DNA of 64,000 nucleotides, taken from assembly GCF_000233955.1 (NCBI RefSeq), contig NZ_JH376599.1:126277-190276 (forward strand), written 5' to 3'. Below, one piece after another: positions 16 through 61,943 of this stretch. This stretch comes from Paraprevotella clara YIT 11840 (GTDB taxonomy: Bacteria; Bacteroidota; Bacteroidia; Bacteroidales; Bacteroidaceae). Under the pieces are notes generated by a model that worked only from the letters and a program-made list of their open reading frames with translations, had not been told where the DNA came from and searched no databases. The number at the start of each line of letters is the position of its first letter. The stretch's first letter is position 1. The position numbers and the translations under genes are program-made.

Positions 16-83
16 AATGAAACAAAATAAAAGGAATATGATACATGGGCGAAAATGACTTTTCATTTTATCCCGTAATTTAG
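16..83 (+). promoter_or_regulatory. Candidate HTCS operator and -7 box, import operon
   Basis: Direct repeat AATGAAAC (16-23), 13-bp A-rich spacer, TATGATAC (37-44), so the halves are 21 bp apart. A -7-like box TAATTTAG lies at 76-83, exactly 31 bp after the second half-site. No TTTG -33 element is seen, as expected for an activator-dependent promoter. The same arrangement recurs at 16340, 27958, 30492 and 50366. Binding by the HTCS at 23818 is inference. Confidence 0.72.
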
Positions 84-147
84 CACCCGATAATGAGAGT
101 GACGATTTATTATATAGAAACTAATAACATTAATAAAATAATCTAAT

Positions 148-2706
148 ATGAGTTCAAGGAAAAACAGAAGAAGATTCGCTCCGTTTTGGACTGGTTTGGC
201 ATGCTGTGCCTTGGGTTGTTTCTACTCCTGTAATGATGGCTACGATTTGATGGATGAAGATCCGGCGTGGCTGGGTAGTAGTATTTACGACTATTTGAAG
301 TCGAATGGGAATTACACCAATGTGGTGAGGATGATTGATGACTTGGGGTATACCGAAGTCCTTGCCCGTACGGGAAGTAAGACCTTATTTGTAGCAGATG
401 ATGATGCTTACGCGCGTTTCTATAATAATAGGAAATGGGGTGTAGGAAGTTATGAAGACTTGTCCGTGGCACAGAAGAAGCAGTTGCTTTATGGTTCGAT
501 GATCAACAACGCCTGCCAGGTTGCTTACTTGTCAAGTTCTACCGGGCCGACAGAAGGTGACTGTATGCGCCGCTTGACTTCAGCATCGGCATACGATACA
601 GTGCCTATTTTGAAACCTGAAGATATGCCGGATACAAAGTATTGGACATATTACAAAAATTCAGGTAAGGCTATCCCGTGTTTGGAAGATATGACCACAG
701 CGCCTATGATTCATTTCATTGAGGCTTATTTGCAGAACCGTCGTATATCCAATGATGATTGTAATTTCCTATTTAATTATGCAACGGAACGTAAGCCGGG
801 TGATGCCAATGTTAATGGAGTGATGATGGTAGAACAAAACATTCGTTGTTCGAATGGTTTTGTACATAAGATGGGGGATGTGATGACCCCGCTTCCTAAT
901 TTGGCTAATGTCATTGCAGGAATGCCACGTGCACAACAGTATTCAAAGATGTTGGATCGTTTTTCAGCACCTTATTATGATGAATCGTTGACACGAGAGT
1001 ATAATCGTTTGTATGGTACTAGTTATGATTCCGTTTTTCAGAAACGTTATTTTTCTGAACGTTCACAAAAAGGACAGCCTTTGAATCTCACGCAGAAAGA
1101 AGAACCGGTAGAAGCGATGCTAAAATTCGACCCGGGATGGAATGAATATTATTCAGAGTTAAATGCCAGTGTCTCTACGGATGTACTTTTGCAACAAGAT
1201 ATGGCTGTTATGCTTGTGCCGACTGATGCCGCACTTACAGAATATTGGGAGAATGGTGCCGGAAAAGTATTGAAAGATAGGTATGGGGCTTGGGAGAATG
1301 TTCCGGATAAAGTGCTTTCGAAGTTATTGAACGTAAACATGCTTAATTCTTTTTCAAATTCTGTTCCCAGTAAATTCAGCACAGTATTGAATGATGCGAA
1401 TGACGAACTGAAGATTAAAAAGGAAGATGTGGATAGCGTATTCTTCGCTTGTAACGGAGCTGTTTACTTGACGAATAAGGTATTTAGTCCAGTAGCCTAT
1501 ATATCCGTTTCGTTTCCGGCTTTGGTTAACGAAACGATGAATATTATCAATTGGGCTATTGAACAATATGATTACGATGTATATCTAAATTCGCAAAATT
1601 CTACTTATAGCTTCTTCATTCCGACGAATCAAGGACTGTTGACTTATGTTGACCCATGTTCTTTTGGTAAGAATCAGACTCAGATTTATGAGTTCCACTA
1701 TGACGAGAAGGCTCAGACGGAAGCAGAGAAAGTACGGGCTTTTATTTTTAACTATGATGTGGAGTCTGGGACAAGGCTTGATTCGATAGGTGAAGCTTCA
1801 ACGACTCAGATACGTGACCGTTTGACGGATATTTTGGAAACACATATTGTGGTCGGTGATGTGGAAAGTGGGGAAAAGTATTATAGGACAAAAGACGGAG
1901 GTACGATTCTTGTCGAGAATGCCGGGCAGTCTAATATGACAATTGCCGGAGGATGGCAGTTGGAACATGGTAAAAACTTGCCTGTTGCACAAATCTATCA
2001 GGAAGAAAATGGTAAGGCGTATATATTGGAGGGATCGCTTATACAGACAGCCCAGAAATCTGTTCCCGATTTACTGAAAGAACATGATGAGTTTTCGAAA
2101 TTTTACGAATTGTTGGAAGGCTCCTCTATCATGTCAAATATTATTTCGACAGGAAGCGGTACTGATGCACCATCTTATGCTTGTCCAAGTCCGAGCATTA
2201 CATTATTTAATACATTCCATTATACGGTGTATGTGCCGACTAACGAGTCTATACAAGCTTTACACGATGAAGGTAAGTTGCCGACTTGGGATGAGGTGGA
2301 AGCAGAACAGGATGAGGATGAAAAAGAGAAGAAGACAGAGCAGATTGAAAAATTTCTCAAATATCACATTCAGGATAATTCGTTATATATCGGGCAGGGG
2401 AAAATTGCCGAGGCTGAATATGAGACTTCCGCTTATGAACTCAATGGGACTGATAACACTATCTCATACTGTCGTTTGACAGTGGAGGGTGATGACAGTC
2501 ATCTGACAGTAAAGGATGCGGCAGGAAACAAGCGTAATGTGTTGAAAAATGGTGGCCTTTACAACCTGATGGCACGTGAATACCAATACAATACTGCAGA
2601 TGTGGCTTCAGCTTCGGAGATTTATACGACATCTTACGCTGTGGTACATCAAATTGATGGGCCATTAATGTGGGAAAAAGACGACGAAGCAGAGAATATG
2701 GAATAA
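148..2706 (+). CDS. FAS1 (fasciclin)-repeat lipoprotein, four repeats
   Basis: An 852-residue predicted outer-surface lipoprotein and first gene of the import operon. The N-terminus has a basic stretch, a hydrophobic segment and a lipobox ending at Cys28, followed by Asn-Asp. Four FAS1-like units can be picked out by the H1-type strand they share: LFVADDDA near residue 80, VMLVPTDAAL near 355, SFFIPTNQGL near 490 and TVYVPTNESI near 695. FAS1 domains are adhesion or glycan-binding folds; in Bacteroidales such lipoproteins often accompany SusCD pairs, probably as surface glycan-binding proteins. It ends 29 bp before susC-like gene 2736. A Glu/Lys-rich linker lies near residues 715-735. The precise ligand cannot be read from sequence. 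Confidence 0.82.
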   Translation: MSSRKNRRRFAPFWTGLACCALGCFYSCNDGYDLMDEDPAWLGSSIYDYLKSNGNYTNVVRMIDDLGYTEVLARTGSKTLFVADDDAYARFYNNRKWGVGSYEDLSVAQKKQLLYGSMINNACQVAYLSSSTGPTEGDCMRRLTSASAYDTVPILKPEDMPDTKYWTYYKNSGKAIPCLEDMTTAPMIHFIEAYLQNRRISNDDCNFLFNYATERKPGDANVNGVMMVEQNIRCSNGFVHKMGDVMTPLPNLANVIAGMPRAQQYSKMLDRFSAPYYDESLTREYNRLYGTSYDSVFQKRYFSERSQKGQPLNLTQKEEPVEAMLKFDPGWNEYYSELNASVSTDVLLQQDMAVMLVPTDAALTEYWENGAGKVLKDRYGAWENVPDKVLSKLLNVNMLNSFSNSVPSKFSTVLNDANDELKIKKEDVDSVFFACNGAVYLTNKVFSPVAYISVSFPALVNETMNIINWAIEQYDYDVYLNSQNSTYSFFIPTNQGLLTYVDPCSFGKNQTQIYEFHYDEKAQTEAEKVRAFIFNYDVESGTRLDSIGEASTTQIRDRLTDILETHIVVGDVESGEKYYRTKDGGTILVENAGQSNMTIAGGWQLEHGKNLPVAQIYQEENGKAYILEGSLIQTAQKSVPDLLKEHDEFSKFYELLEGSSIMSNIISTGSGTDAPSYACPSPSITLFNTFHYTVYVPTNESIQALHDEGKLPTWDEVEAEQDEDEKEKKTEQIEKFLKYHIQDNSLYIGQGKIAEAEYETSAYELNGTDNTISYCRLTVEGDDSHLTVKDAAGNKRNVLKNGGLYNLMAREYQYNTADVASASEIYTTSYAVVHQIDGPLMWEKDDEAENME

Positions 2707-2735
2707 AATGTCAAACCAAGTAATATTATAAATGA

Positions 2736-5700
2736 ATGAAAACCCTATATCGACATATTATGTTAGGTGCGTTTGTCGCTTTGCCCTTGATGGGTTTTGC
2801 GCAAGCACCCGGGACGATGATTAGTGGTACTGTCTCTGACGATATTGAACCGTTGATGATGGTGAATGTTGTCGAAGTAGACGAGGCTAATCGTATCGTG
2901 GCTCACGGTGTAACGGACATCAATGGAAACTTTTCTTTCCGTATTGTGGATCCAAAACATCGTCTGAAGATTTCGTACGTAGGTTATGCCACACAACTTA
3001 TCCCTATTAAAGGGACACGTTATAATATAAAGTTGAAGAGCAACTTGCAATTAAAGGAGGTGGTCGTGAAACAGAAGCGCGTAATGCAATCCAGTGGCTT
3101 GGCCATACCGGAACGTGAAGTTTCGGTGGCTCATCAAACTATTGATGCTAAAGAGTTTGAAGGATTGAGCCTGACGAGCATCGATGAAGCTTTGCAAGGT
3201 CGTGTGGCAGGTTTGGATATCGTGTTTAACTCCGGTGACTTAGGAGCCGGTACAACCATGCGTTTGCGTGGGGTCAGTTCTATCAACGGTAATACCCAAC
3301 CGTTGGTAGTAGTAGACGGTAATGTGTTTGAAAGCGATTACTTGTCTGGTTTTGATTTTGCTTCGGCTACAGAGGAACAGTATTCCGAGCTATTGAATGT
3401 CAATCCGGACGATATCGCCAGTATTACGGTATTGAAAGATGCCGCGGGGACAGCCATTTATGGTTCGCAGGGAGCAAATGGTGTAATTGAAATTAAGACA
3501 AAGCGTGGGGTAAGGGGGAAGACGAGAGTGACTTATTCCTATGCGGCTACGATGACTTATCAACCCAAAGGCATGCGTATGTTGAATGGTGACCAGTACA
3601 CTATGTTGATGAAAGAAGCATATTATAATCCTGCATTAAGTGATGCGTCGTCCAACATACCGGAATTCAATTACGATCCGTCTTTTGCGGAATATGAGAA
3701 TTATAATAATAATACGGACTGGGTGGATGCTGTGACCCAAGTGGGTTGGTTGCAGAAGCATTATGTGACACTCTCTGGAGGTGGTGAGAAAGCTGCATTT
3801 CGTATCTCTGCCGGTTACGATCACCAGACGGGTACGGTTATAGCTCAGGAACTCGATCGTTTCACTACGCGTGTGGCTTTGGATTATTTTGTGAGTGACC
3901 GCATTAAGATTGTAACGAACTTTAATATGACGTATCAAGATAATCAGAAGAACTATGATGACCTGTTGAATATTGCTTACCGTAAAATGCCGAATATGTC
4001 TATTTATGAGCAAGATGCTTATGGTAATAACACTTCGAATTACTATCACATGTTGCCAACGGCATCTTCCACATTCCGCCAGGATAAAGACCAATACAGT
4101 TTGGTGAATCCGGTAGCTTTAGCATACGAGGCCACTAATGATGAGACATTGTATAAAATGCAGCCCGAGTTTCAATTGCATTATAATCTCTTGGGCTTGG
4201 ATGAGACCAAGACGCAATTGAAGTATGAAGGCAAAGTGCTGTTCAATATTGAGAATAGGTATACGGACAAGTTCTATCCCTCCAGTTTGGTAACAGCCGG
4301 GTGGACGGATAAGAATAACAACAAAGCTTCATCGGAAGCATATAAGGGGCGGGCTATCACGACGACACATCGCTTGACATTTATTCCGCACATCATGAAT
4401 ACCGACCATTCTTTCATGGCGATGGCACAGTTCCAACTAACGGACGGTGACTCCAAGAAGCAGTTAAATTCTGTGTATAACCTTCCGACGGGAAGTATTC
4501 AGTCTCCTACGGCTGACGGCTTGATATCAGAAATGTCTACGTCTGCCGGTCAATGGAGGAGTGTTTACATGACGTTTTCAGCCCATTATGCATTTAAGAG
4601 TCGTTATATTGCAGACTTCTCTATTCGTCGGGATGGTACGACCAAGTTTGGCGATAATAAGCGTTGGGGGAATTTCCCGGCTTTGTCTTTCCGTTGGAAT
4701 GTGGTGGATGAACCATGGATGAGAGGTACGCAAAAATGGTTGTCTATGCTCTCGCTTCGTCCGGGATGGGGGCGTGTGGGCAGCCAGCCTACGGATGAAT
4801 ATCTTTTTTTCTCGAAGTATACAGGCACGGATTCCTATAATGGAGCCAACTCCATTTATCCGAGCAATATCCGGTTGAGCAATTTGCAGTGGGAGGAGAA
4901 AGAAACATGGAATGTAGGTTTTGATCTTGGGTTGTTCAATAATATGATTACGGCAGATTTTAATATCTATACCCAAATGACATCTAAACTTTTGATGCGT
5001 GATGTGAAGCTTCCGTCATCATCCGGATTTTCATCGCTTTCTTGGACTAATGTAGGAAAAATGCGTAATAACGGTTGGGAATTCAATGTCAATGGGACGG
5101 ATGTGGTCAAGGTCGGTAAATTCAGATTAGGTTTCAACGTGACGTTTGCCAATAACAAAAACGAAATCGTGGAGATGGATCCTACGGCTTTGTCCAGCCT
5201 GAATAAAGACTTCGATAATAAAAATGGTTCTTATCTGACCCGAATCCAGCTCAATAATCCATTTGGAGCTATATACGGTTTCCGTTATAAGGGCGTATAT
5301 CAGTATTCTGATTATTCGGATGTGGAAGTTCCAGGTGTGAGTGGCCCGAACGCTCCGGTAGCTCGGGATGAGAATGGTAATGTGATTCGTGATAAGGCCG
5401 GTTTTACCATTCCAATGGTATTCGGTTATGACAAGACGACGAATACAGAACTGTATGAATTCCAAGGTGGAGATGCCATTTACGAGGATATTAATCATGA
5501 TGGTAATATCAATGAGTTGGATATAGTTTATCTGGGTTCCTCTTTGCCTAAGATTACCGGTGGATGGGGACTGAAGTTTTCTTATGGCCGTTGGTCGCTC
5601 AATGCACAGTTTAACTTCCGCGTGGGGAACAAAGTGATTAACGAAGCCAGAATGAATGCGGAGTCTATGTATAATAACAATAATCAGGCTGCTTCTGTCA

Positions 5701-6035: not shown

Positions 6036-6054
6036 TATTTAAAATGTTTACGTT

Positions 6055-16339: not shown

Positions 16340-16407
16340 GATGTTACAAATACGAAAGTATATGATACAAAATATTTTGGAAAAGATTCCGGCAAAGGCT
16401 AATTTAG
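16340..16407 (+). promoter_or_regulatory. Candidate HTCS operator and -7 box, 16486 gene
   Basis: Direct repeat GATGTTAC (16340-16347), 13-bp spacer, TATGATAC (16361-16368). A -7-like box TAATTTAG sits at 16400-16407, again exactly 31 bp downstream, and is identical in sequence to the box before the import operon. The box lies in the loop of the hairpin at 16385-16418. It gives the 16486 gene its own promoter. Confidence 0.72.
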
Positions 16408-16418
16408 CTGCCGGAATC
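16385..16418 (+). other. Intergenic hairpin around the -7 box
   Basis: A perfect 10-bp stem GATTCCGGCA/TGCCGGAATC encloses a 14-base loop that itself contains the small palindrome GCTAATTTAGC. No T-run follows, so it is not a standard intrinsic terminator. It could stabilise the 3' end of the SusD message or bind a regulator over the promoter. Confidence 0.55.
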
Positions 16419-22213: not shown

Positions 22214-22275
22214 AAAAAAACGGGACACGCAAGCGGAAAACGGCCTTCCGACGGGCTTTTATTCGCTTGCTTGTC
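22214..22275 (-). terminator. Terminator of the higBA pair
   Basis: Read on the minus strand, GACAAGCAAGCG pairs with CGCTTGCGTGTC (one mismatch) and is followed by CCG and seven T. The stem overlaps the last two bases of the higA stop codon. Confidence 0.65.
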
Positions 22276-22609
22276 AAAGCATCGCCGCAACCTTGCGGAT
22301 GTTTTCCAAGATTGCGGACAGCTTGCCATCGTGCCGGGCTGTCTGCATGTCGTAGTCGGATTGCATCCCCCGCCAAAATTCGGCATTTATACCCGTTGCC
22401 GCCTCAATTTTCAAGGCATATTCGGTGGTTATGGGGCGTTTGCCGTTTACAACCTCGTTAAACACGGAATATGAAACGCCTATCGTTTGGGCGAATTTCC
22501 GCTGTGAAAGCCCCCGTGCCTCTAACTCGTCTTTCAGTATTTCGCCCGGATGTATGGGCGTGGAAGGTTGCAACTCGTGCGGCGCATAGATTCTCTTTGC
22601 TGTTTCCAT
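22274..22609 (-). CDS. higA: HigA-type antitoxin, XRE-family HTH
   Basis: A 111-residue antitoxin of the HigA/VapI family. The motif HPGEILKDELEARGLSQRKFA (residues 20-40) opens an XRE helix-turn-helix, followed by VSYSVFNEVVNGKRPITTEYALKIEAATG. The C-terminal ISAEFW-like segment (INAEFWRGMQSDYDM) is characteristic of HigA. It should neutralise the HigB toxin encoded immediately upstream (5-bp gap) and repress the shared promoter. Toxin-first order is the usual higBA arrangement. The pair is unrelated to glycan use and marks an accessory insertion in the PUL. Confidence 0.9.
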   Translation of the reverse strand: METAKRIYAPHELQPSTPIHPGEILKDELEARGLSQRKFAQTIGVSYSVFNEVVNGKRPITTEYALKIEAATGINAEFWRGMQSDYDMQTARHDGKLSAILENIRKVAAML

Positions 22610-22614
22610 ATCGA

Positions 22615-22932
22615 TTACTTGTAATGGTTGCTAATATCCAACAATCGGCACACGGTTATTATTTGTTCGTTCACTACGTCCCTAACGGTAAATTCAAGTA
22701 GGTATTGTCGGTTTATCCGTACCGATGAAATGCCTTTTTTGTCTCCTTTCAACACTTCGTAATTAAGCGAATTGAGGCGGTACAGCATTTCAACATTGAT
22801 GGCACGTTTAAGAGACGCGACCGCCTTTTGATATCCTTTTATAACTTCGGGCTGATAGCGGTGCTTTTTGTCGCTTGTGCGTCCTTGCTCGAACAATTCA
22901 CGCAGGTAGTCTTTATCGAATTCTATAAACAT
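22615..22932 (-). CDS. higB: HigB/RelE-type toxin
   Basis: A 105-residue RelE/ParE-superfamily toxin, presumably a ribosome-dependent mRNA endonuclease. It shows LYRLNSLNYEVLKGDKKGISSVRINRQYLLEF, the usual core, with basic residues in RINRQYLLEF. The start is set at the ATG at 22932: a longer reading from a TTG at 22956 would begin inside the -7 box of the promoter at 22954-22985 and is therefore ruled out. The antitoxin follows directly. Confidence 0.85.
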   Translation of the reverse strand: MFIEFDKDYLRELFEQGRTSDKKHRYQPEVIKGYQKAVASLKRAINVEMLYRLNSLNYEVLKGDKKGISSVRINRQYLLEFTVRDVVNEQIITVCRLLDISNHYK

Positions 22933-22953
22933 AGTGCCTGGCCTGTTTGAGGG

Positions 22954-22985
22954 CAAAGATACCTATTTTGTTTGATATTCGCAAA
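22954..22985 (-). promoter_or_regulatory. higBA promoter (TTTG-N20-TATCTTTG)
   Basis: On the minus strand TTTG (plus positions 22982-22985) is followed after 20 bases by TATCTTTG (22954-22961), a full match to the Bacteroidetes sigma-ABfr consensus. The start point would be close to 22948, leaving about 16 bases to the ATG at 22932. Confidence 0.8.
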
Positions 22986-23817: not shown

Positions 23818-26800
23818 ATGAACTGGAAAAAAAATCTCTTAAGCTTTCTTTTGGGACTGTTGGGAGTCTTTATGAAAGCACAAACCCCAGTCTCTTTTAC
23901 TTCAGATCAGGGACTGTCGAATACCTGTATCCGTTCCATCATGGAAGACAGCCGGAAAAATGTGTGGATTTCTACGCAAAGCGGCTTAAACCGTTATGAC
24001 GGTGTGAAGATGAACGTTTATCGGCATAAAAAAGGTGAAGCCGGGACTTTGGGGCATGACATGGTAAGTTGTGCGTTGGAAGTAGAACCCGGTTCTGTGC
24101 TTATCGGAATGGAGTCCGGCGTGCAGATGTACTCTTATGATACGGACCGGTTTACCGATGTTCCTATTATCGTAGTCGGGGGCGACACCATCCATGCCCA
24201 TGTAATTTCGATGACCAAACTGAGCGGAGATTCTATTTATGTCTGTACGGCCGGATACGGACTTTATCGCCTGTGTGAGGATGAGGATGGAAAGAAGTTC
24301 CTGAAAGAAATGAGAGATTTTCCGCCGGCTAAGGTCACTCTTTTGCAAATATTTGAAGACCGTGAAAAGAGAGTCTGGTTTGTAGATGCGGACGGAGGGA
24401 TACATTGTTCGAAGGGTGGAAAACTCCGTCGGGTGGCAAGCTATCCCGGGGCTATCGAACTTTGTCAGAGTTCGTCCGGACATCTTTATCTGGCCACGGC
24501 TCATGACGGGTTATTGTGTTATTCCGAAACAGAAAATCGTTTTTATGATGTTTTTCCGGAAAGCCGCCGTTACGTGATGGCTTCCATAAATCCCGGATTG
24601 GAAGGACAGATATTGATATCTACCGACGGTGACGGGCTGAAAATCTATGATGAAGCCACCGGACTTATTACGCAGAGCAATATCCGTACGTATGAATATA
24701 ACCTGGCTACGTCTAACGTGAAGGATGCCATTGTGGACAGCGATGGCAATACATGGGTCGGAGTCTACTGGAAAGGCGTATTGGTGATGCCCGACATGGC
24801 GACCAGTTTTGAATACGTGGGGCGTCGCTCGGTTCAGAAGAACACGATCGGTACGAATTGTGTGACGTCTATCACCGGCGACGGACATGGAAACCTTTGG
24901 TTGGCGGCCGACCACTGCGGGGTGTATCATCTGGCTCATGATGGCAGCAGCAGTGTCCATTTCAAACCGGGTGTGGTGAAGACGATGCCTTCCACGGTGA
25001 TGAGCATGTTGGAGGATTCGGAAGGGACGTTATGGCTGGGTTCTTCGTGGTCGGGTGTGGCGAAGATGGACAAACATACTGGAGAGTGCGTCAACCTCGG
25101 CGCGTGGGTGAAGGACGGAAATAAAATACCGAATGCTTACACGATGGTGGAAGACGGTTATAAGAATATATGGATAGGGACGATGGGTAGCGGGCTGTTC
25201 CGCTACAGTCTGCTTACGGGAGAGTTGACACAATATAAGATGTTGGTCGATAATACGGTGGTCTACCCTTATCAGATTCTGAGAAACCTTTATGTGAGGA
25301 CGCTGTTGGTACATGGTGATTTCCTTTATGTGGGTACGGCCGACGGGTTGGAGGTGTTCACTTTGTCTAAGGGAGGAGACATCCGTTTACGGGGGCGGTT
25401 TATGCTTAAAAGCAGTGTGCGCGACATGAAAGTGGATGCCGACGGAGTGCTTTGGGCTGCCACGACATTAGGACTTGTGCGTTTCGACATAGCGAACGAA
25501 AGCGTGAAGACTTATACCGTGGAAGACGGGTTGCCTATTAATTCCACATGTAGCGTAGAAATCGCTTCCGACGGGAAAATATGGGTGAGCACGGACGATG
25601 GCCTGACCTGTTTTAATTCGGAGAAAGGAACCTTTGACAATTACCACATCGAAGACGGACTGCAAGGAAATGAGTTCAGCGTAAAGGCTTCTTATTCTCA
25701 AGACGGGATGCTGTATTTCGGTGGTATCAACGGACTGACTTTGTTCCGTCCGTCGGATGTGGGGAAGCAAGCGGGGATGGAGAAAGTGGAACTTCGTATG
25801 GTGGATTTTTATGTCAACGGTAAGCCGGTGCATGCAGGTGACCGTTCGGGACATTACACGATTATAGACCGTTGGCTTCCGCTGGTGGACGAGGTGAACC
25901 TTTCCCATCGTGACAAGTCGTTCAGCATAGAACTTTCCACGATGAGTTTCAGCAACCGGCGTGTGACGTATTACTACTGTATCAACAATGGCGATTGGAT
26001 TGCGTTGGAGTACGGGCAGAACCGTATATCCTTTATCAATATGGAAACGGGAACCTATCGCATACGTATGAAAGCCGAGGCATACGGGGAGTCGTCCGAA
26101 GTGAAGGAACTGACGGTGATGGTACATCCCGTATGGTATTTGTCCCCACTGGCCGTTATGGTCTATTTCGTGCTGCTTCTTTTTATCTTTTATGTGGTAC
26201 TTTTGCAAGTCAAGGAACATTTCAAGGCCAAACGGATTCTTGAAAAGCATCGTCAGGTGGAAGAACTGAATGAAGCGCGTATTCAGTTTTTTATGAACAT
26301 CAGTCATGAAATACGTACCCCGATGACGCTTATTCTCAGTCCGCTCATGAAGTTGATGAAGTCGGACAAAGACGAAACGCATCAACGCAGTTATTCGCTC
26401 ATATATCAGAATTCCCAGCGTATTCTCCGGTTGATCAACCAACTAATGGATGCGCGTAAGATAGAAAAGGGACAGTTCCGATTGAAGTATCATAAAGTAG
26501 AGATGGTAGGTTTCGTCAATAATCTCTATGAGTTGTTCGAAACCACGGCTCATAATCGCGGCATTACGTTCACCTTTGTACATGATATGGAACGAATGGA
26601 CGTTTGTGTAGATCCGCAAAACTTTGACAAGGTGGTGATGAACCTGCTTTCGAATGCGTTTAAGTTCACTCCCGACGGCGGTGTGGTCACCATCGAGTTG
26701 AAAGACGTGAGCGGTGACATACCCGGTGAACGGGATTTCAGGCTTTCGGTGACGGACAGTGGTGTGGGCATTCCCGACCAGGAGAAGAGCCGGGTGTTTG

Positions 26801-27906
26801 AACGTTTCTATTCAGGCAAATGGGGCGGAGATTATGTCGGTACCGGTATCGGATTGAATCTGACGAAATTGTTGGTAGAGCTGCATGAGGGGCGTATTTG
26901 GGCGGAAAACAATCCCGAAGGCCAGGGTACGCGTTTCATTGTGCAGATGCCTCAGGCGTTGGAGCTGCTGGAGGATATTTCGGATGACAAGATGCCCCAA
27001 GCTGTTTATTCCGCGCCCTTGGAGGCGGAGCATGTGGCAGAGACGGTAGCCGAATTGCCGGAAGAAAAGAAAGGAGGAAGTAAGCACGGACGTATATTGG
27101 TCGTGGAGGACGAGACAACGATACGGCGTTATCTGCATGGTGAGTTTGCCGGGGAATATCATGTCAGTGAATGCAGTAACGGGCAGGAAGCTTGGGATTA
27201 CCTTATCCAGAACGTGGAGAAAGTGGATTTGGTCGTGAGCGATGTCATGATGCCGGTCATGGACGGTATTACGCTTTGCCGCAAAATCAAGGGGAGTTTC
27301 AATACGAACCATATTCCTGTGATTCTGTTGACGGCTAAAAGCGAAGATGCCGACCGTCTGGAAGGATTGTCCACAGGAGCTGATGCCTATATGTCCAAGC
27401 CTTTTAATATCGATATTTTGCGGCAGACCGCAGAGAACTTATTGAAAAATAAACGAAGATTACAGGGCAAATACGGTGTAGCCCTACAGGAAGAGAAAAT
27501 GGATAAAATAGAATTGGTGTCTCCGAACGACCAGATGATGGAACGAGTGATGAAGGTGATTAACGAGAATATTTCCAGTCCGGATTTGAGTGTGGAGTTC
27601 ATTGCCGATAAAATAGGTATCAGCCGGGTTCATTTCCATCGCAGGCTGAAAGATGCCACAGGATTGACTCCACGCGATTTCGTACGGAATATCCGTCTTT
27701 CGCAGGCGGCTAAACTTTTGGCCGGGAAGAATTTCGATATTACCGATGTGGCTATCGCTACGGGCTTCAGGTCTGTATCTACATTTTCTACGTGCTTTAA
27801 AGGATACTTCGGCATGACGCCTACCGAATATGCCCGTAAGAATGCCAAGACAAAAACAGAGTCGGAAAGAGAAGAGGATGAGGACGTTACTGAGGGACTG
27901 CCATAA
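23818..27906 (+). CDS. Hybrid two-component system sensor-regulator (HTCS)
   Basis: A 1362-residue one-protein signalling system in the inner membrane. Order: signal peptide (1-22); periplasmic two-component regulator propeller repeats (about 25-690) with many VWIST, LWLGSS and IWIGTMGSGL blade motifs; Y_Y_Y domain (about 700-775); one transmembrane segment (near 777-802, LAVMVYFVLLLFIFYVVLL); HisKA with NISHEIRTP and phospho-acceptor His830; HATPase_c (N-box near 942, DSGVGIP near 981); receiver domain (ILVVEDE, phospho-acceptor Asp1142); AraC-type HTH at the C-terminus (about 1258-1345). Such regulators sense an oligosaccharide in the periplasm and activate their PUL. All key residues are present. 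The six direct-repeat sites in this window are candidate targets. The gene is monocistronic, with a terminator just after it. Confidence 0.96.
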   Translation: MNWKKNLLSFLLGLLGVFMKAQTPVSFTSDQGLSNTCIRSIMEDSRKNVWISTQSGLNRYDGVKMNVYRHKKGEAGTLGHDMVSCALEVEPGSVLIGMESGVQMYSYDTDRFTDVPIIVVGGDTIHAHVISMTKLSGDSIYVCTAGYGLYRLCEDEDGKKFLKEMRDFPPAKVTLLQIFEDREKRVWFVDADGGIHCSKGGKLRRVASYPGAIELCQSSSGHLYLATAHDGLLCYSETENRFYDVFPESRRYVMASINPGLEGQILISTDGDGLKIYDEATGLITQSNIRTYEYNLATSNVKDAIVDSDGNTWVGVYWKGVLVMPDMATSFEYVGRRSVQKNTIGTNCVTSITGDGHGNLWLAADHCGVYHLAHDGSSSVHFKPGVVKTMPSTVMSMLEDSEGTLWLGSSWSGVAKMDKHTGECVNLGAWVKDGNKIPNAYTMVEDGYKNIWIGTMGSGLFRYSLLTGELTQYKMLVDNTVVYPYQILRNLYVRTLLVHGDFLYVGTADGLEVFTLSKGGDIRLRGRFMLKSSVRDMKVDADGVLWAATTLGLVRFDIANESVKTYTVEDGLPINSTCSVEIASDGKIWVSTDDGLTCFNSEKGTFDNYHIEDGLQGNEFSVKASYSQDGMLYFGGINGLTLFRPSDVGKQAGMEKVELRMVDFYVNGKPVHAGDRSGHYTIIDRWLPLVDEVNLSHRDKSFSIELSTMSFSNRRVTYYYCINNGDWIALEYGQNRISFINMETGTYRIRMKAEAYGESSEVKELTVMVHPVWYLSPLAVMVYFVLLLFIFYVVLLQVKEHFKAKRILEKHRQVEELNEARIQFFMNISHEIRTPMTLILSPLMKLMKSDKDETHQRSYSLIYQNSQRILRLINQLMDARKIEKGQFRLKYHKVEMVGFVNNLYELFETTAHNRGITFTFVHDMERMDVCVDPQNFDKVVMNLLSNAFKFTPDGGVVTIELKDVSGDIPGERDFRLSVTDSGVGIPDQEKSRVFERFYSGKWGGDYVGTGIGLNLTKLLVELHEGRIWAENNPEGQGTRFIVQMPQALELLEDISDDKMPQAVYSAPLEAEHVAETVAELPEEKKGGSKHGRILVVEDETTIRRYLHGEFAGEYHVSECSNGQEAWDYLIQNVEKVDLVVSDVMMPVMDGITLCRKIKGSFNTNHIPVILLTAKSEDADRLEGLSTGADAYMSKPFNIDILRQTAENLLKNKRRLQGKYGVALQEEKMDKIELVSPNDQMMERVMKVINENISSPDLSVEFIADKIGISRVHFHRRLKDATGLTPRDFVRNIRLSQAAKLLAGKNFDITDVAIATGFRSVSTFSTCFKGYFGMTPTEYARKNAKTKTESEREEDEDVTEGLP

Positions 27907-27957: not shown

Positions 27958-28026
27958 TTTGTTACAAAATAGCAAAAATCCGTTACGCAGGAATAAACAG
28001 AAAAGGTTTATTCCTGCGTATTTTTG
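27958..28026 (+). promoter_or_regulatory. Candidate HTCS operator and -7 box, 28068 gene
   Basis: Direct repeat TTTGTTAC (27958-27965), 13-bp spacer AAAATAGCAAAAA, TCCGTTAC (27979-27986). The -7 box TATTTTTG at 28019-28026 is a full consensus match 32 bp further on. An inverted copy of the first half-site (GTAACAAA) is at 27922-27929. The second half-site and the -7 box are built into the stem and T-run of the HTCS terminator. Confidence 0.7.
27984..28025 (+). terminator. Intrinsic terminator of the HTCS gene
   Basis: Perfect 15-bp stem (27984-27998 with 28006-28020, arm TACGCAGGAATAAAC), 7-base loop, then five T. Confidence 0.9.
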
Positions 28027-28067: not shown

Positions 28068-30192
28068 ATGTTACGAAGATTTTTGTTATTCATGTTAGTA
28101 GTCTTAGGGCTGGGGAGCGCGGCAAGGGCTACGAGTAGGAAAACCGCTGATTTGAGTTTGGTCGAACCAAGCGGCGCAAACGCCCAGTGGGATTCGGAAA
28201 CACATGTTTTTACTTGGACTTTTAGCTATGACGGTCGTATCTCGTTTCCTGATTTGACAGGTGACCTTTCTGGCTATGCCTTGGTCGTATTGGAAACGGA
28301 AGACTTGACCGATGGCAATTCGGAAGATGATAGTAAGCCCGGTTTTCGTCTGGACTTGTTATTGGAGAATAATGAAACTTTAATTGGCTATAATTATAAG
28401 GCCGCTTGGGAAACCGATGGACGTTTGGTCGTTGACCTGTCGGCATATGATAAAGAGAAGTTGGCACAAGTGAAAGAATTTCGTTTGAATACCAATAGTA
28501 ATTCAGGTTCCGTGGTTGTCAAATCCGTATCTTTGGTGCCGCCTTTGTCATTGGACTTCGATGAGGACGGCAAGGCGTATATTCGCCCTCAGGATTTGGC
28601 AGACTTTGCCAATGGCCTTACAGTAGACGCGGAAACAGGCAAGATAACTAAGAGAGGAACTGATGCAGCCAATATAAAATTGCTTTTGGATGACGTGGAT
28701 TTATCGGATGTTGCAAGTTTTAAGGTTGAATGTATTGAAACGACCACAGGCCTATGGACTACGACAACTTTCCGAAGTAATGATTGGTCTCAAGGTTGGT
28801 GGGATTCGCGTGCAGGTGCCACAGTCGAAGATAAATATCGCAAGGAGCTTTGCCACGCCTCTGCCATTGAATTGGGCTTTGACGAAAGTAAAGAAGGGGA
28901 AGTAACCATCAGTAGCATTTGTCTGCAAAAAGGTATGTTGACAGTGTCTGGAAATGACGTGGTGCTGAAAGATGTGCCTTTCTATGACGCAGCAACGGGA
29001 AGTGTTGTTACCCCATTATGGAATGTGGGAAAAGAAACAGCAGAGGTTTATGGAAATTGTAATAATGTGCAGGCTTGTGGCTTTTATGCCGATTTGGACG
29101 GTTATAAGGAAATCCGCGTTTATCCGGGCGATGGCTGTTCCAATTTGCGTTTCTGGTTTATGTCTGCCAAGCATTTCTGTGGAGGGGAAGGATTACGCTG
29201 TGATTGACATCGCTGGCATCAAGGCTCAATGTGCAGGGAAGGCTTACTTGATGGGCGCGAAAGCTAATGCCGGTACCAATGTTACCATTTCGGACATAAC
29301 GGCTTTGAGCAATGCTGATTATACCATTGGTGGATTTGGCTTGTGGCCAACAGGAATGAAGGAAGAGATGTCGGCATCTGGTGCTTCGATTGTTGATGCT
29401 ACCGGATTGAACAATTTCACTCCTATTGCTTTGGAAGCCGCCAACCCGAACTGCCTCTTCCTCGTGTCCGATGCTTCCAAGCTCTCCAACGAGAAGAACG
29501 TGTTGGTCAAGGGAGAAGACGGCACTTATGCCTGTGCCAACTTGGCTTTGGAAAGCGGATACTCTTTCCGTACTCCATACAGCTTTACAGTAGAGGCTGC
29601 CAGTGTGAAGAAAACGGTAGGCCCCAACTTCGGCACATTCGTGTCTCCTTTTGAAGTGGCCGTGCCCGATGGCTGCAAGGCTTACAACCTGACGGGCGTG
29701 GATGAAAACAACGTAGTGAAAGGCGAGGAAACGGCAACGGTTGCCGCCAACAAGCCCGTATTGCTGGCCGGTGACGGCGAATGCACGTTTGAGGCAGAGG
29801 ACGTGACCGTGGAAGCTACCCCCGCATCGTTGGTGAACGGCATCCTGAACGGTGTGTACGAAGCTGGCACCACGGCCCCGGAGGGCAGCTACGTGCTCCA
29901 GACGCAGGATGACGTGACGGCTTTCTACAAGGTGGCCGAAGGCGGGAAGCAGAGGGTAACCCCCTTCACGGCCTACCTCGCCTTGCCTACCGCTGCCGCT
30001 GTGAACGCCAAGTCGCTGTCTGTCAGCTTCGACAACGCAGGCACTACCCGTGTGGACGATGCCGCTGCCGAAGGGCCGGCCACTGTGGAAGCCGTTTACG
30101 ACCTGCAAGGCCGCAAGTTGGGAACTCCGATAAAGGGCGTCAACCTGCTGAGACTGTCGGACGGAAGCGTGAAGAAAGTAATCGTAAAATAA
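28068..30192 (+). pseudogene. Secreted surface protein interrupted by a frameshift
   Basis: The reading frame from ATG 28068 (signal peptide LLFMLVVLGLGSAARA, then beta-rich sequence) stops at 29207, but homologous-looking sequence continues in the +1 frame from about 29180 to 30192, starting ISVEGKDYAVIDIAG. The shift lies between about 29155 and 29190; removing one base would restore a single protein of about 707 residues. The second part ends with a beta-sandwich and the tail AVYDLQGRKLGTPIKGVNLL and KKVIVK, like the 16486 protein. It could be a true inactivation, a sequencing error or, less likely, programmed frameshifting. It is under its own operator-promoter, which argues that an intact form belongs to the regulon. 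No enzyme motif is seen; a carbohydrate-binding role is a guess. Confidence 0.78.
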
Positions 30193-30491: not shown

Positions 30492-30559
30492 TTTGTTACT
30501 TTATCGCAAAAGTGTGATACATACAAAGAACTTAGAAACGGGCTTTTAGCGTAATTTTG
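30492..30559 (+). promoter_or_regulatory. Candidate HTCS operator and -7 box, GH115 operon
   Basis: Direct repeat TTTGTTAC (30492-30499), 13-bp spacer, TGTGATAC (30513-30520). The -7 box TAATTTTG at 30552-30559 matches the consensus fully and is 31 bp downstream. No -33 TTTG is present at the usual distance. Confidence 0.75.
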
Positions 30560-47624: not shown

Positions 47625-49985
47625 ATGAATGTATTAAGATCATTATGTTCGGCATCGCTGTTGCTTGTATGGGTCTCGGCGAATGCCCGGATTCCGGTGA
47701 AAGTGGAGACTTTCCCGTTGAACGACGTTAGATTGACGCAAAGTCCGTTCAAACATGCGGAGGATTTGGACGTCCGTTATTTACTCGGGTTGGATCCCGA
47801 CCGTCTTTTGGCGCCTTATTTGAAAGGTGCAGGATTAGAACCGAAAGCTGATAATTATACCAACTGGGAAAATACGGGTCTGGACGGTCATATCGGGGGA
47901 CATTACGTTTCGGCGCTTTCCTATATGTATGCCGCCACCGGAGACGAAGAAATCAAACAGAGGTTGGACTACATGTTGTCCGAATTGAAACGTGCCCAAG
48001 ACGCTGCCGGTGACGGTTACTTGTGTGGCGCACCGAACGGACGTAAAATATGGGAAGCTGTGTCTAAAGGGGACATCCAAGCTTCCTCTTTCGGACTGAA
48101 TGGAGGATGGGTACCGTTGTACAATATCCATAAGACTTATGCCGGTTTGCGGGATGCTTACCTTTTGGCGGGAAGTAAGGAGGCGCGTGACATGTTGGTA
48201 AAGTTGACCGATTGGATGATGAATCTGACGAAAGACCTGAGCGACGAACAGATACAGGACATGTTGCGCAGCGAACACGGGGGATTGAACGAGGTGTTTG
48301 CCGATGTGGCCGACTTGACGGGAAAGGACAACTATTTGCAACTGGCTCGCCGTTTCTCGCACCGTGAGATTCTCGACCCGCTGTTGGAACATGAAGACCG
48401 ACTGACAGGCAAGCATGCCAATACCCAAATCCCGAAAGTCATCGGTTACAAGCGCATAGCGGACTTGCAAGGCGATGAGGGTTGGGACGATGCGGCACGT
48501 TTCTTTTGGGAGACGGTGGTGGAGCGGCGCAGCATCTCTATCGGCGGCAACAGTGTGCGTGAGCATTTCCATCCTTCGGAGGATTTCTCCAGTATGCTGA
48601 CGAGCGAGCAGGGGCCTGAGACCTGTAATACGTATAATATGCTGCGGCTGACCAAAATGTTGTACCAGACCAGTGCGGACGTACATTATATGGACTATTA
48701 CGAACGGGCGTTGTACAATCACATTTTGTCTACCATAGATCCGGTGCAGGGAGGTTTCGTATATTTTACGCCGATGCGTTCGGGGCATTATCGGGTATAT
48801 TCCCAACCGCAGACGAGTTTCTGGTGTTGTGTGGGCTCCGGAATGGAAAACCATGCCAAATACGGAGAGATGATTTACGGCCACAGCGAGGATGAACTGT
48901 ATGTCAACCTGTTTATTCCTTCGGTGTTGCAGTGGGGGAAGGTGCGCGTGGAGCAACTCACGGGTTTCCCTTATGAAGAGGCTACCACCCTTCACCTGTC
49001 GTGCGGTAAGGCGAAAGAGTTCACGGTGAAGTTCCGTGTGCCGGAGTGGACGGACGTTTCCCAGATGGAACTGACGGTGAACGGGACGGCTCAACCCGTG
49101 TCGGTATCCGGCGGTTATGTGACGGTAAGCCGCAAATGGGCCGATGGAGACGAAGTGCGGCTGACGTTGCCGATGTCTTTGCGTGTGGCCGCTCTGCCCG
49201 ATGGTTCGGATAACTATTCTTTTATGTACGGCCCAATAGTGTTGGCTTCGCGCATGGGGAAACAGGAGCAGGTAGGTCTGTTTGCTGATGATAGCCGTGG
49301 AGGACATGTGGCTTCCGGTCCGCAGTGGCCTTTGCAGGATATGCCGGTCATTGTAGGTGACAAAGACGACCTTTTATCCCATATCGAGAAGGTGGAAGGA
49401 AAGCCGTTGGAGTTCAAACTTCGTGGGGTGTATCCCGAACGTTATGAAGGAATGACGTTAGAGCCGTTCAATTGCCTGTATGAATGCCGTTACATGGTGT
49501 ATTGGCCGGTGATTTCTCCCGATAAGCTGAAAGCCCAGCAGGAGGCTTTGGCTCGTTCGGAACGGGAGAAGAACGAACTGGAGGCTGCTACTGCGGATAA
49601 GGTTATCTGTGGGGAACAGCAGCCGGAGAGCGATCATTTCATCAGGTCGGAGCAGTCACGTAACGGAAGCCACAACGACCGCCATTGGCGTGACGCTACC
49701 GGAAAGGGTTGGTTCTCGTACCGCATGAAAACGAATGGACGTGATGTGTCCCGTTTGCGTGTGGAGTACGAGGGGGGTATGGCTGATACGGACGCTTTGG
49801 TTATGGTAGAAGAACGTACGGTCGGTATGCTAAGTCCGGTGGATGGACGAGGGATGAAAACGGCGTATTTCGATTTGCCGGACGAGATGGACGGGAAGGA
49901 CGTTCTGACCGTCAAAATCACTCCTTCGGAGAAGAAAGCCACTCCTCGCGTGTATGAGGTAAGGCTGATGACGGCAAAGAAGTAG
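47625..49985 (+). CDS. GH127 beta-L-arabinofuranosidase-type enzyme (DUF1680)
   Basis: A 786-residue exported enzyme with an (alpha/alpha)6 barrel. Sequence EQGPETCNTYNM places Glu332 and Cys334, and SFWCCVGSGMENH places Cys401 and Cys402; these match the Zn-binding Glu/Cys set and cysteine nucleophile of the characterised Bifidobacterium GH127 enzyme. YTNWENTGLDGHIGGHYVSALSYMYAATGD near residue 75 is another family motif. The C-terminal extension (from about 640) is a beta-sandwich (DUF4986/DUF6805-like). It should remove beta-L-arabinofuranose, though some relatives act on other sugars. Last gene of this block, followed by a strong bidirectional terminator. Confidence 0.92.
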   Translation: MNVLRSLCSASLLLVWVSANARIPVKVETFPLNDVRLTQSPFKHAEDLDVRYLLGLDPDRLLAPYLKGAGLEPKADNYTNWENTGLDGHIGGHYVSALSYMYAATGDEEIKQRLDYMLSELKRAQDAAGDGYLCGAPNGRKIWEAVSKGDIQASSFGLNGGWVPLYNIHKTYAGLRDAYLLAGSKEARDMLVKLTDWMMNLTKDLSDEQIQDMLRSEHGGLNEVFADVADLTGKDNYLQLARRFSHREILDPLLEHEDRLTGKHANTQIPKVIGYKRIADLQGDEGWDDAARFFWETVVERRSISIGGNSVREHFHPSEDFSSMLTSEQGPETCNTYNMLRLTKMLYQTSADVHYMDYYERALYNHILSTIDPVQGGFVYFTPMRSGHYRVYSQPQTSFWCCVGSGMENHAKYGEMIYGHSEDELYVNLFIPSVLQWGKVRVEQLTGFPYEEATTLHLSCGKAKEFTVKFRVPEWTDVSQMELTVNGTAQPVSVSGGYVTVSRKWADGDEVRLTLPMSLRVAALPDGSDNYSFMYGPIVLASRMGKQEQVGLFADDSRGGHVASGPQWPLQDMPVIVGDKDDLLSHIEKVEGKPLEFKLRGVYPERYEGMTLEPFNCLYECRYMVYWPVISPDKLKAQQEALARSEREKNELEAATADKVICGEQQPESDHFIRSEQSRNGSHNDRHWRDATGKGWFSYRMKTNGRDVSRLRVEYEGGMADTDALVMVEERTVGMLSPVDGRGMKTAYFDLPDEMDGKDVLTVKITPSEKKATPRVYEVRLMTAKK

Positions 49986-50026
49986 ACGTGGCAGGACACG
50001 ACTTTTCAGCGGAAACGCGATAAATA

Positions 50027-50067
50027 AAAAACAGCAGACGGGTGTGACCGTCTGCTGTTTTTTTTGT
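50027..50067. terminator. Bidirectional terminator after GH127
   Basis: Stem of at least 11 bp, ACAGCAGACGG/CCGTCTGCTGT, extended by flanking A and T runs, with a 6-base loop. The T-run follows on the plus strand, and the A-run at 50025-50030 gives a T-run on the minus strand. Confidence 0.9.
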
Positions 50068-50274
50068 GAGCCGGGTAACATCCGGCTTGGGGTTTCCTGC
50101 AAAAACAATCCTTTTTCTCTTAAACAATCCTACCACCTAAGAACCAATCATTAACCTAATTTCCAATTATGAAACTCCTGAATATCCTGATACCTTCACA
50201 CAAGGCTACCTGAAAAACCAACATTAACCTAATCATTATATTATGAAACCTATTTCCACTTTTATGATTGTCTC
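50027..50274 (-). ncRNA. Candidate small RNA, minus strand
   Basis: On the minus strand a -7 box TAACTTTG (plus 50280-50287) is followed by about 248 bases with no gene and then by the bidirectional terminator at 50027-50067. Near the 3' end there is a second small hairpin AGCCGG/CCGGCT (about 50071-50089). No TTTG -33 box stands at the right distance. It could be a PUL-associated regulatory RNA or a remnant of a promoter. This is inference from signals alone. Confidence 0.35.
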
Positions 50275-50346
50275 TATGGCAAAGTTAGGATATTCTTTCT
50301 TTTTTCGTTTTTGAATATGTAGCGGATATTTTATATTATGAAACCT
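50142..50346. repeat. Direct repeats in the 50068-50365 gap
   Basis: TATATTATGAAACCT occurs perfectly at 50237-50251 and 50332-50346. A longer imperfect pair, AACCAATCATTAACCTAAT (from 50142) and AACCAACATTAACCTAAT (from 50216), each leads into ATTATGAAAC. They resemble duplicated operon-leader sequence. Nothing else is recognised in this gap apart from the small-RNA candidate. Confidence 0.5.
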
Positions 50347-50365: not shown

Positions 50366-50433
50366 AATGAAACATGAGCAAACAAATGTGTTACACGACG
50401 TAAAATCGAGTAGGCATAGAAGGTGTATCTTTG
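50366..50433 (+). promoter_or_regulatory. Candidate HTCS operator and -7 box, GH98 operon
   Basis: Direct repeat AATGAAAC (50366-50373), 13-bp spacer, TGTGTTAC (50387-50394). The -7 box TATCTTTG (50426-50433) is a full consensus match exactly 31 bp downstream. The first half-site is identical to that of the import operon. Confidence 0.75.
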
Positions 50434-58771: not shown

Positions 58772-58810
58772 AAAAATAACGGGTGCGTTAGCGGCGCACC
58801 CGTTATTTTT
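58772..58810. terminator. Bidirectional terminator between convergent genes
   Basis: Perfect 16-bp stem AAAAATAACGGGTGCG (58772-58787) with CGCACCCGTTATTTTT (58795-58810) and a 7-base loop. It serves the plus-strand GH43-like gene and the minus-strand GH30-GH43 gene. Confidence 0.93.
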
Positions 58811-58828
58811 ATATTCGTATTTCTTTTT

Positions 58829-61729: not shown

Positions 61730-61793
61730 GTGTTTTTTGTTTTAAAGTTTGCAGGATAAAGCCCATGGCTCATCCTTTTTTCATGACGATAAG

Positions 61794-61801
61794 CAAAGTT
61801 A
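61794..61801 (-). promoter_or_regulatory. -7 box before the GH30-GH43 gene
   Basis: TAACTTTG on the minus strand, 64 bases from the ATG at 61729. No TTTG -33 box at the usual spacing. It lies 72 bp from the operator-like repeat at 61874-61902, farther than at the other promoters. Confidence 0.5.
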
Positions 61802-61873
61802 CAGATTTTCAGCCTGTCGCATTTTCGCTCCGTTAGCGAATACTTTCGCGCAAGTAGCATCCTTTTCTTTAGT

Positions 61874-61943
61874 GTAACATATATTTATGCGCATGTAACA
61901 TGGACCTTTAAAAAGCTTTTTCAGGGCAAATATTGGTAACATG
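61874..61943 (-). promoter_or_regulatory. Candidate HTCS operator in the divergent region
   Basis: On the minus strand CATGTTAC (61895-61902), 13-bp spacer, TATGTTAC (61874-61881), the same 21-bp period as the other sites. A third half-site, CATGTTAC at 61936-61943, lies 41 bp (about two periods) further upstream. Orientation points toward the GH30-GH43 gene; the box at the standard 31 bp distance (TATTCGCT, 61835-61842) is weak. Confidence 0.6.

What the first reader, a model, noticed from the sequence alone, without database searches (positions are those of the whole stretch)
16..61943. A six-site regulon signature: 21-bp-period direct repeat at fixed distance from the -7 box
Six intergenic positions carry nnTGnTAC-N13-nnTGnTAC: 16-44, 16340-16368, 27958-27986, 30492-30520, 50366-50394 on the plus strand and 61902-61874 on the minus strand. 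In four cases the -7 box begins exactly 31 bp after the repeat and in one case 32 bp after it. Spacers are all A-rich with a central CG/GC step. AraC-type domains usually contact two direct half-sites about two helical turns apart, and the only AraC-type protein here is the HTCS at 23818. All five promoters also lack a -33 element. Together these define the probable operator and the full target list of this HTCS.
Basis: partly seen in the sequence, partly recalled or inferred. Interest (0 to 1): 0.88.

Follow-up and report, generated by a model that had tools for sequence, protein, structure and literature searches.

The report
Xylan-sensor operators, one driving an RNA
A gut bacterium's xylan sensor very probably recognises a repeated DNA sign placed at a fixed distance in front of its target genes, and one of those signs appears to switch on a conserved non-coding RNA instead of an enzyme gene.

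Summary
Six repeats sit upstream of operons in a large xylan locus of a Paraprevotella-like genome. Three match TGnTAC-N15-TGnTAC exactly; three carry one mismatch. Spacing to the -7 box is 31 bp at sites 1, 2, 4, 5 and 32 bp at site 3; the 61902 repeat is followed by a second operator with its own box at 31 bp. The half-site is longer than stated (AATGWTACAW plus CGAAA). Site 2 keeps a -33 TTTG.

A model trained on other genomes gives 10 hits (E<=0.05) in 4.23 Mb, 8 of them in and beside this locus. Of 18 genus genomes, the 8 with the HTCS orthologue have 3-16 hits each, the 10 without 0-1. Of 41 fresh hits, 28 have a -7 box at 31-32 bp.

The target list is not full: a symporter-GH10-GH43-GH67 operon, a distant GH97 gene, the HTCS gene in some relatives, and a divergent minus-strand promoter (50347) also carry operators. 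That promoter drives no protein gene but a predicted ~250-nt RNA conserved in 7 genomes, with two invariant ATTAGGTTAATG blocks resembling the FopS/GibS seed. The operator is a new member of a known kind; I found no report of an HTCS-controlled RNA.

The parts
23818..27906 (+). HTCS regulator (Reg_prop propeller, Y_Y_Y, HisKA, HATPase_c, Response_reg, HTH_18/HTH_AraC), the probable reader of the operators
   Evidence: Pfam; orthologue presence tracks operator presence
16..57 (+). operator 1 (two 21-bp half-sites), before the fasciclin/SusC/SusD genes starting at 148
   Evidence: (E 8.5e-5); orthologue L049:6941
76..83 (+). -7 box TAATTTAG, 31 bp after the repeat
16340..16381 (+). operator 2, before gene 16477 (weak CBM_4_9 match); TTTG of a -33 element overlaps its end
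   Evidence: (E 1.2e-4); counterparts L013:3269, L014:2340
16400..16407 (+). -7 box TAATTTAG
27958..27999 (+). operator 3, after the HTCS gene and before 28068-30192; overlaps an inverted repeat that may be the HTCS terminator
   Evidence: (E 3.0e-4); counterpart L013:14140
28019..28026 (+). -7 box TATTTTTG, 32 bp after the repeat (could also be the T run of a terminator)
30492..30533 (+). operator 4, before GH115 (30583) and the enzyme genes that follow
   Evidence: (E 0.036); counterpart L013:16424
30552..30559 (+). -7 box TAATTTTG
50366..50407 (+). operator 5, before SASA esterase (50486) - GH98 (52493) - 56614
   Evidence: (E 8.2e-4); counterparts L050:13830, L053:16985
50426..50433 (+). 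-7 box TATCTTTG
   Evidence: (E 1.8e-4); R1 also lists the counterpart in G087, G022, G106 and G110; in G109 and G112 a weaker repeat is read by eye
50280..50287 (-). -7 box TAACTTTG of the RNA promoter
50022..50274 (-). predicted non-coding RNA of about 250 nt; start inferred from the -7 box, end from the hairpin and T run
   Evidence: no Rfam match at gathering threshold
50206..50253 (-). RNA module 1; invariant ATTAGGTTAATG at 50222-50233
50130..50177 (-). RNA module 2; invariant GAAATTAGGTTAATGATTGGTT, seed at 50149-50160
50030..50059 (-). hairpin followed by a T run, likely terminator of the RNA
   Evidence: sequence
61861..61902 (-). operator 6 (upstream pair of half-sites) before the GH43-CBM6 gene 61729-58829
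   Evidence: E 2.5e-5; counterpart L051:7867
61820..61861 (-). weaker promoter-proximal operator after operator 6; gives an array of four half-sites
   Evidence: not listed by R1; counterpart L051:7826
61794..61801 (-). -7 box TAACTTTG of that promoter

Best explanation
The repeats are operators of the HTCS at 23818, probably a xylan sensor. Two AraC-type DNA-binding domains of a phosphorylated HTCS dimer would sit on one face of the DNA, two helical turns apart. Each would contact an A box (TGWTAC) and a B box (CGAAA) in successive major grooves of a half-site of about 17 bp. With 31-32 bp between repeat and -7 box, the B box of the promoter-proximal half-site lies where a -33 element would be, so the protein would hold RNA polymerase at promoters that mostly lack one (class II-type activation). 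The regulon comprises the operons of the window, a symporter-GH10-GH43-GH67 operon just before it, and a distant GH97 gene. One divergent operator (50347, minus) faces a conserved non-coding RNA. Shown by computation: motif, geometry, conservation, co-occurrence with the HTCS, conserved region without a shared ORF. Inferred: binding, activation, transcription and function of the RNA.
For: Model R1 was built from 16 sites of other genomes. In the own genome it gives 10 hits at E<=0.05, of which 8 lie in C23:120294-188177, 1.6% of the genome (chance 2e-13). Genus-wide, the 8 genomes with the orthologue (63-100% identity) have 10, 16, 10, 6, 11, 10, 16 and 3 hits; the 10 without have 1, 0, 0, 0, 1, 0, 0, 0, 0, 0 (2.3e-5 for a perfect split). 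Among genomes at least 90% complete it is 6 with (3-16 hits) against 5 without (0-1). Fresh hits of G106, G109, G110 and G112 (41 of 43; the two G112 training sites left out): 28 of 41 have a box with >=5 of 6 TAnnTTTG positions at 31 (23) or 32 bp (6; one site has both), against a mean of 0.21 per other distance. Another 21 hits picked, none used in training: 10 at 31 bp, 1 at 32. A weight matrix from the six sites gives 20.0-24.3 for each site left out in turn, but at most 13.3 in 120 kb around six other HTCS genes of the same genome. Targets recur across species, judged by N-terminal sequence: fasciclin gene, symporter, GH97, GH98, HTCS gene. The two boxes repeat with a 21-bp period in 23 fresh sites. 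DNA-binding domains are 68-82% identical to this one in four orthologues compared and 29-49% in six own-genome paralogues compared.
Against: No binding or start-site data. Of the 41 fresh hits 13 have no box at 31-32 bp, among them all 4 of G112. The own-genome hit C21:380698 (E 1.4e-4) has none and lies beside a divergently oriented MFS gene. G069, with a 63% orthologue, has only 3 hits and no clear RNA orthologue. Four of the eight genomes with the HTCS supplied the training sites, and most window sites have counterparts among them. The first look of the tool scored only part of its candidates (150 of 1479), so hits may be missing. The 23 sites of the profile were picked because they have a box at 31 bp. 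In two of the ten genomes without the HTCS one hit occurs. The receiver motif that is usually S/CHIP reads NHIP here.
Confidence: 0.88

Rival explanations
1. Another regulator reads the repeats: the OmpR-type two-component system just upstream (kinase at C23:118858), an HTCS paralogue, or the CRP-like master regulator Cur.
For: A response regulator with a Trans_reg_C domain and its kinase lie next to the C23:120294 site; OmpR-type proteins also bind direct repeats (recalled). The BT4338 (Cur) consensus wwwTATGTTnTAnAACATAwww (passages of PMC11501099) shares TATGTT.
Against: The kinase was found in 2 of 18 genomes, while 8 have 3 or more operator hits. The 40% HTCS paralogue is not listed for G022, G112 or G069, which have operators. 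Cur sites are inverted repeats of other spacing; the distribution of Cur in the genus was not tested.
Confidence: 0.07
2. The repeats are chance or base-composition effects of A-rich intergenic DNA.
For: The bare TGnTAC pair occurs 12 times in the genome against 16 for the reversed control.
Against: Window excess, clustering of the full motif, co-occurrence with the HTCS and the sharp 31-bp peak in fresh sites.
Confidence: 0.01
3. The region downstream of the 50347 operator is not a regulatory RNA but encodes a tiny peptide, or is an untranslated leader or DNA element.
For: Module 1 contains ATGATTAGGTTAATG, which opens a 26-aa frame in the window and a similar 27-aa frame in P. xylaniphila. 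Some relatives of the element elsewhere in the genome lie upstream of genes.
Against: By reading the sequences the frame ends after 8, 11 and 17 codons in G022, G106 and G110. In the three loci where I looked the neighbour downstream runs the other way: GH127 in the window, an unnamed gene in G022, a gene resembling the SASA esterase in G106. The other five seed copies in the genome do not open that frame. No covariation supports a fold, which is neutral.
Confidence: 0.2

Closest known systems
HTCS direct-repeat motifs of Bacteroides thetaiotaomicron (Ravcheev et al. 2013, PMC3878776; passages read, part of the abstract among them)
   Same: Predicted direct repeat of two sites, average distance 21 bp, upstream of PUL operons, for 16 of 36 HTCSs; half-sites of 12-16 bp with spacers of 5-9 bp, close to the 17 + 4 seen here.
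   Different: Different species, HTCS and sequence. The passages that I read give no fixed distance to the -7 box and no RNA target; here both appear.
PUL 43 HTCS of Bacteroides xylanisolvens (PMC4855328; passages read)
   Same: A xylan HTCS whose loss lowers expression of its own PUL and of a separate GH67/GH10/transporter cluster, as the motif predicts here for GH10/GH67 and a symporter.
   Different: No operator was given in the passages read; the organism and the PUL differ.
BT0366 HTCS and PUL prioritisation (PMC3404733; passages read)
   Same: An activated HTCS raises its own PUL and lowers distal PULs.
   Different: Repression there was attributed to direct association with the repressed loci; here an HTCS-driven RNA is a possible second route.
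FopS and GibS sRNAs of B. thetaiotaomicron (PMC11697453; PMC7366714; passages read)
   Same: Seed with TTTCAT...AGGTTAA, complementary to start-codon regions; FopS is multicopy; both are linked to carbohydrate use.
   Different: FopS are about 65-70 nt and driven by canonical promoters, GibS is 145 nt from a PM2 promoter; this RNA is predicted at about 250 nt, carries the seed-like module twice and sits behind an HTCS operator. Similarity is modest (16 of 2000 shuffles reach it, and four other places of the window score as high or higher).

Membership tests
Hybrid two-component system (HTCS) | Reg_prop/Y_Y_Y sensor, HisKA, HATPase_c, receiver and AraC-type HTH in one protein | tested here: met
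   (Y_Y_Y 24.4 bits, slightly below its cut-off of 26.6)
Hybrid two-component system (HTCS) | S/CHIP motif in the receiver domain (PMC11253607, passages) | tested here: inconclusive
   NHIP at residues 1164-1167; the paper gives S or C in 84% of HTCSs
HTCS operator (PMC3878776) | direct repeat with about 21 bp between half-sites | tested here: met
HTCS operator (PMC3878776) | upstream of PUL operons and conserved in genomes that have the HTCS | tested here: met
HTCS operator (PMC3878776) | bound by the cognate HTCS | not testable with these tools
   needs gel shift or footprint
FopS/GibS sRNA | R1/R1' seed sequence | tested here: inconclusive
   local score 28, reached by 16 of 2000 shuffles; of 4264 chunks of the window four others score 28-30, some at gene starts read on the opposite strand, so part of the likeness may come from being antisense to common start-codon regions
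FopS/GibS sRNA | length about 65-70 nt (FopS) or 145 nt (GibS) | tested here: not met
   predicted about 250 nt from box to terminator
FopS/GibS sRNA | pairs over start codons of susC or PUL mRNAs | tested here: inconclusive
   25 susC starts: mean z -0.68 and -0.22 for modules 1 and 2; 21 window genes: -0.59 and -0.43; no susC preference; the lowest z values (-3.63, -2.71) belong to GH115 of the same locus
FopS/GibS sRNA | bound by RbpB | not testable with these tools
   needs CLIP or EMSA

The most novel reading that the evidence does not exclude
The xylan HTCS directly activates a dedicated two-seed small RNA. While xylan is present this RNA would block translation of other mRNAs, competing PULs above all, by pairing over their start codons, so one sensor would both open its own locus and set limits post-transcriptionally.
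Probability: 0.3. Interest if true: 0.82.

Novelty: new variant of a known kind. Interest (0 to 1): 0.62.

Why it matters
The operator alone is a new member of a known kind (HTCS direct repeats). What goes further is (1) a near-fixed operator-to--7 distance seen in dozens of sites and several genomes, which would explain how promoters that mostly lack a -33 element can be switched on and gives a usable rule for finding HTCS regulons; and (2) an HTCS operator that faces a conserved non-coding RNA. How Bacteroidota rank glycans is not settled; HTCS-linked repression of other PULs has been reported (PMC3404733, passages), and an HTCS-driven RNA would make a concrete, testable route.

Tried and rejected
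Bare hexamer pair as a genome-wide signature: rejected, 12 matches against 16 for the reversed control. Chance: rejected. Neighbouring OmpR-type two-component system as reader: rejected by distribution of its kinase. Nearest HTCS paralogue as reader: rejected by distribution among the listed matches. Target prediction for the RNA: no clear result; susC starts are no better than window genes, and the lowest single z values (-3.63 and -2.71, gene 30583 of the same locus) are the best of 92 tests. Consensus fold of the RNA: 10 pairs, none with covariation, so no support for a structure. Exact seed complement as target finder: 7 places in the genome (0 for the reversed control), 2 in the RNA; at the other five no ORF above 60 aa starts within 100 bases on the complementary strand. 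Rfam: nothing at gathering threshold in the window or nine related loci; the weak matches are all below their cut-offs. Literature: no paper on an HTCS-driven sRNA or a fixed HTCS operator-to--7 distance was seen in the listings (no paper listed), which cover open-licence papers only. My note says that 11 of 21 hits have a box at exactly 31 bp; the output shows 10 at 31 and 1 at 32, and the report uses that.
Full report
WHAT THE WINDOW IS. The window is G000:C23:126277-190276, part of a 4.23-Mb genome in 165 contigs. The nearest named relative found is Paraprevotella xylaniphila YIT 11841 (HTCS 77% identical; genome G087, whose contig has the same length of 131,765, 81%). In the same way G112 is taken to be the genome of L014 (contig of 169,681). 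The genes are fasciclin-domain proteins, two SusC/SusD-type pairs (the second SusD match is below its cut-off), GH115, GH43, esterases, GH95, GH2, GH127, GH98 and GH43-CBM6: by content a large glucuronoarabinoxylan utilisation locus. The only AraC-type protein among the 30 ORFs scanned is the HTCS at 23818-27906.

THE OBSERVATION. All six repeats are at the stated coordinates. Three match exactly and three have one mismatch. The four 31-bp and one 32-bp spacings are correct. Site 6 differs: its 31-bp position holds TATTCGCT, but a second, weaker operator (61861-61820, minus; matrix score 14.9 against 30-32 for the six; not listed by R1) follows at once and has TAACTTTG at 31 bp. P. xylaniphila has both (L051:7867 and 7826). 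Site 2 retains TTTG 20 bp before its -7 box; the counterparts in L013 and L014 do too. Among 23 fresh sites 2 have TTG in that region; by reading they are L207 and L217, which stand before genes that resemble 16477.

THE MOTIF IS LONGER. Aligning the repeats and profiling 23 fresh sites from G106, G109 and G110 shows two boxes per half-site, AATGWTACAW and, about 10 bp on, C-G/A-AA(A), repeated after 21 bp. The A-rich 'spacer' with CG/GC is thus the second box of the first half-site. The matching box of the second half-site lies about where a -33 element would be. The 23 sites were chosen for having a box at 31 bp, so the -7 columns of that profile are not independent.

SPECIFICITY. The bare hexamer pair is not enriched in the genome (12 against 16 for the reversed control). 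A sequence-only model of 42 positions, R1, was built from 16 sites of other genomes: 8 from P. xylaniphila and 2 each from L014, L052, L053 and L056. It has no -7 columns. On the own genome it gives 26 hits at E<=10 and 10 at E<=0.05; the tool scored 150 of 1479 first-look candidates. Eight of those ten are in C23 between 120294 and 188177; the others are C21:380698 and C40:1627. The six sites score 20.0-24.3 when left out in turn of a weight matrix; 120 kb around six other HTCS genes of the same genome reach at most 13.3.

CO-OCCURRENCE. In 18 genomes of the genus (20 asked for, 18 searched), eight have the HTCS orthologue at 63-100% identity: G000, G087, G022, G112, G109, G106, G110, G069. 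They have 10, 16, 10, 6, 11, 10, 16 and 3 operator hits. The ten without it have 1, 0, 0, 0, 1, 0, 0, 0, 0, 0. Several of the ten are incomplete (70-87%); among genomes at least 90% complete it is 6 with (3-16 hits) against 5 without (1, 0, 0, 0, 0). G106, G109 and G110 gave no training sites. In a family-wide draw of 101 genomes 32 have at least one hit: G000 10, G087 16, G022 10, G069 3, and 1-5 in the other 28 (G047 5, G014 and G075 4). The kinase of the neighbouring OmpR-type system was found in 2 of 18 genomes.

GEOMETRY. Of 41 fresh hits in G106 (10), G109 (11), G110 (16) and G112 (4 of its 6), 23 have a box with at least 5 of 6 TAnnTTTG positions at exactly 31 bp and 6 at 32 bp (28 sites in all, none of them in G112); other distances average 0.21. 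Of 21 further hits that I picked, 10 have it at 31 and 1 at 32. Of 26 hits outside the genus that had become loci, 6 have it at 31 and 1 at 32 (four of the 26 are also in the set). Misses include the strong own-genome hit C21:380698.

C23:120294, about 6 kb before the window, precedes a sugar symporter (MFS_2), GH10, GH43 and GH67; by its N-terminal sequence the same symporter has an operator in G109 and G110. C40:1627 precedes a GH97 gene, with TACTTTTG at 31 bp; the like gene of P. xylaniphila (L146) has TAATTTTG at 31 bp. In G106 and G110 an operator precedes the HTCS gene itself; none scored 7 or more before 23818 in the window, where a HigB/HTH_3 pair lies. A weaker repeat lies 106 bp upstream of operator 1 (C23:126187, E 0.43), kept in P. 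xylaniphila.

THE DIVERGENT OPERATOR AND ITS RNA. The minus-strand operator 50347-50306 has TAACTTTG at 31 bp. No protein gene follows; the enzyme gene beyond it (47625-49985) runs the other way. The sequence has relatives in P. xylaniphila, G022, G106, G109, G110 and G112 (E 2.7e-40 to 6.8e-11; in G112 62 of 206 positions), that is in 7 of the 8 genomes with the HTCS, the own one counted. G069 (best E 0.028) and the ten genomes without the HTCS (best E 0.0032) have only weak matches or none. R1 lists the operator before it in 5 of the 7 (own, G087, G022, G106, G110). In G109 and G112, reading, a weaker GTTTC...GCGAC repeat is followed after 31 bp by TATCTTTG. The alignment of seven has the invariant blocks ATTAGGTTAATG and GAAATTAGGTTAATGATTGGTT. 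The two modules resemble each other (score 45) and the FopS R1' consensus given in PMC11697453 (score 28; 16 of 2000 shuffles reach it). Of 4264 chunks of the window, four others score 28-30, some of them gene starts read on the opposite strand, so the likeness may partly come from being antisense to common start-codon regions. The convergent neighbour differs between the three genomes looked at, which favours a separate transcript. Five further copies of the seed exist in the genome. Target prediction was inconclusive, with the lowest energies relative to shuffles at GH115 of the same locus, and no fold is supported.

MECHANISM AND LIKELIHOOD. Operators of this HTCS: about 0.88 (inferred from co-occurrence and layout). 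Class II-type activation: likely, from the position of the second B box over the -33 region (inferred). The RNA being transcribed under HTCS control: about 0.75. The RNA repressing other mRNAs, competing PULs above all: about 0.30, resting on its likeness to FopS/GibS.

COMPARISON WITH WHAT IS KNOWN. The 21-bp direct repeat is the published form of predicted HTCS motifs (PMC3878776, passages). A xylan HTCS reaching a separate GH10/GH67 cluster has a precedent (PMC4855328, passages). HTCS-linked repression of other PULs has been reported (PMC3404733, passages). I do not file the RNA as a FopS or GibS member: its predicted length does not fit, the seed match is modest and targets are unproven.

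Noticed in passing
window 28068-30192 (+): The gene after operator 3 appears split: homologues in G109 and G110 match it in two frames, while the P. xylaniphila copy matches in one frame. Frameshift or assembly error.
   Followed up: partly
window 22274-22956 (-): HTH_3 and HigB-like pair, a likely toxin-antitoxin module, between gene 20205 and the HTCS.
   Followed up: partly
window 61902-61820 (-): Four half-sites in tandem (periods about 21, 20, 21) before the GH43-CBM6 gene, kept in P. xylaniphila.
   Followed up: yes
G000:C28:9865 (L236, minus strand): TTGTTTTTCATTATTGAAATTAGGTTAATG followed by a hairpin and T run: a short element that looks closer to FopS than the PUL RNA does (not scored).
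   Followed up: no
G000:C21:452234, C21:445333, C15:172281: Further copies of the seed element, some before genes, sharing downstream TTTAAGG and GATTGTTTTC-like blocks in part; possibly a multicopy RNA family.
   Followed up: partly
window 16379-16415 (+): The -7 box of promoter 2 lies within an inverted repeat (AGATTCCGGCA ... TGCCGGAATCT), seen in the sequence; meaning unknown.
   Followed up: no
G000:C21:380698: Strong operator hit (E 1.4e-4) beside a divergent MFS transporter gene but without a -7 box at 31 bp.
   Followed up: partly
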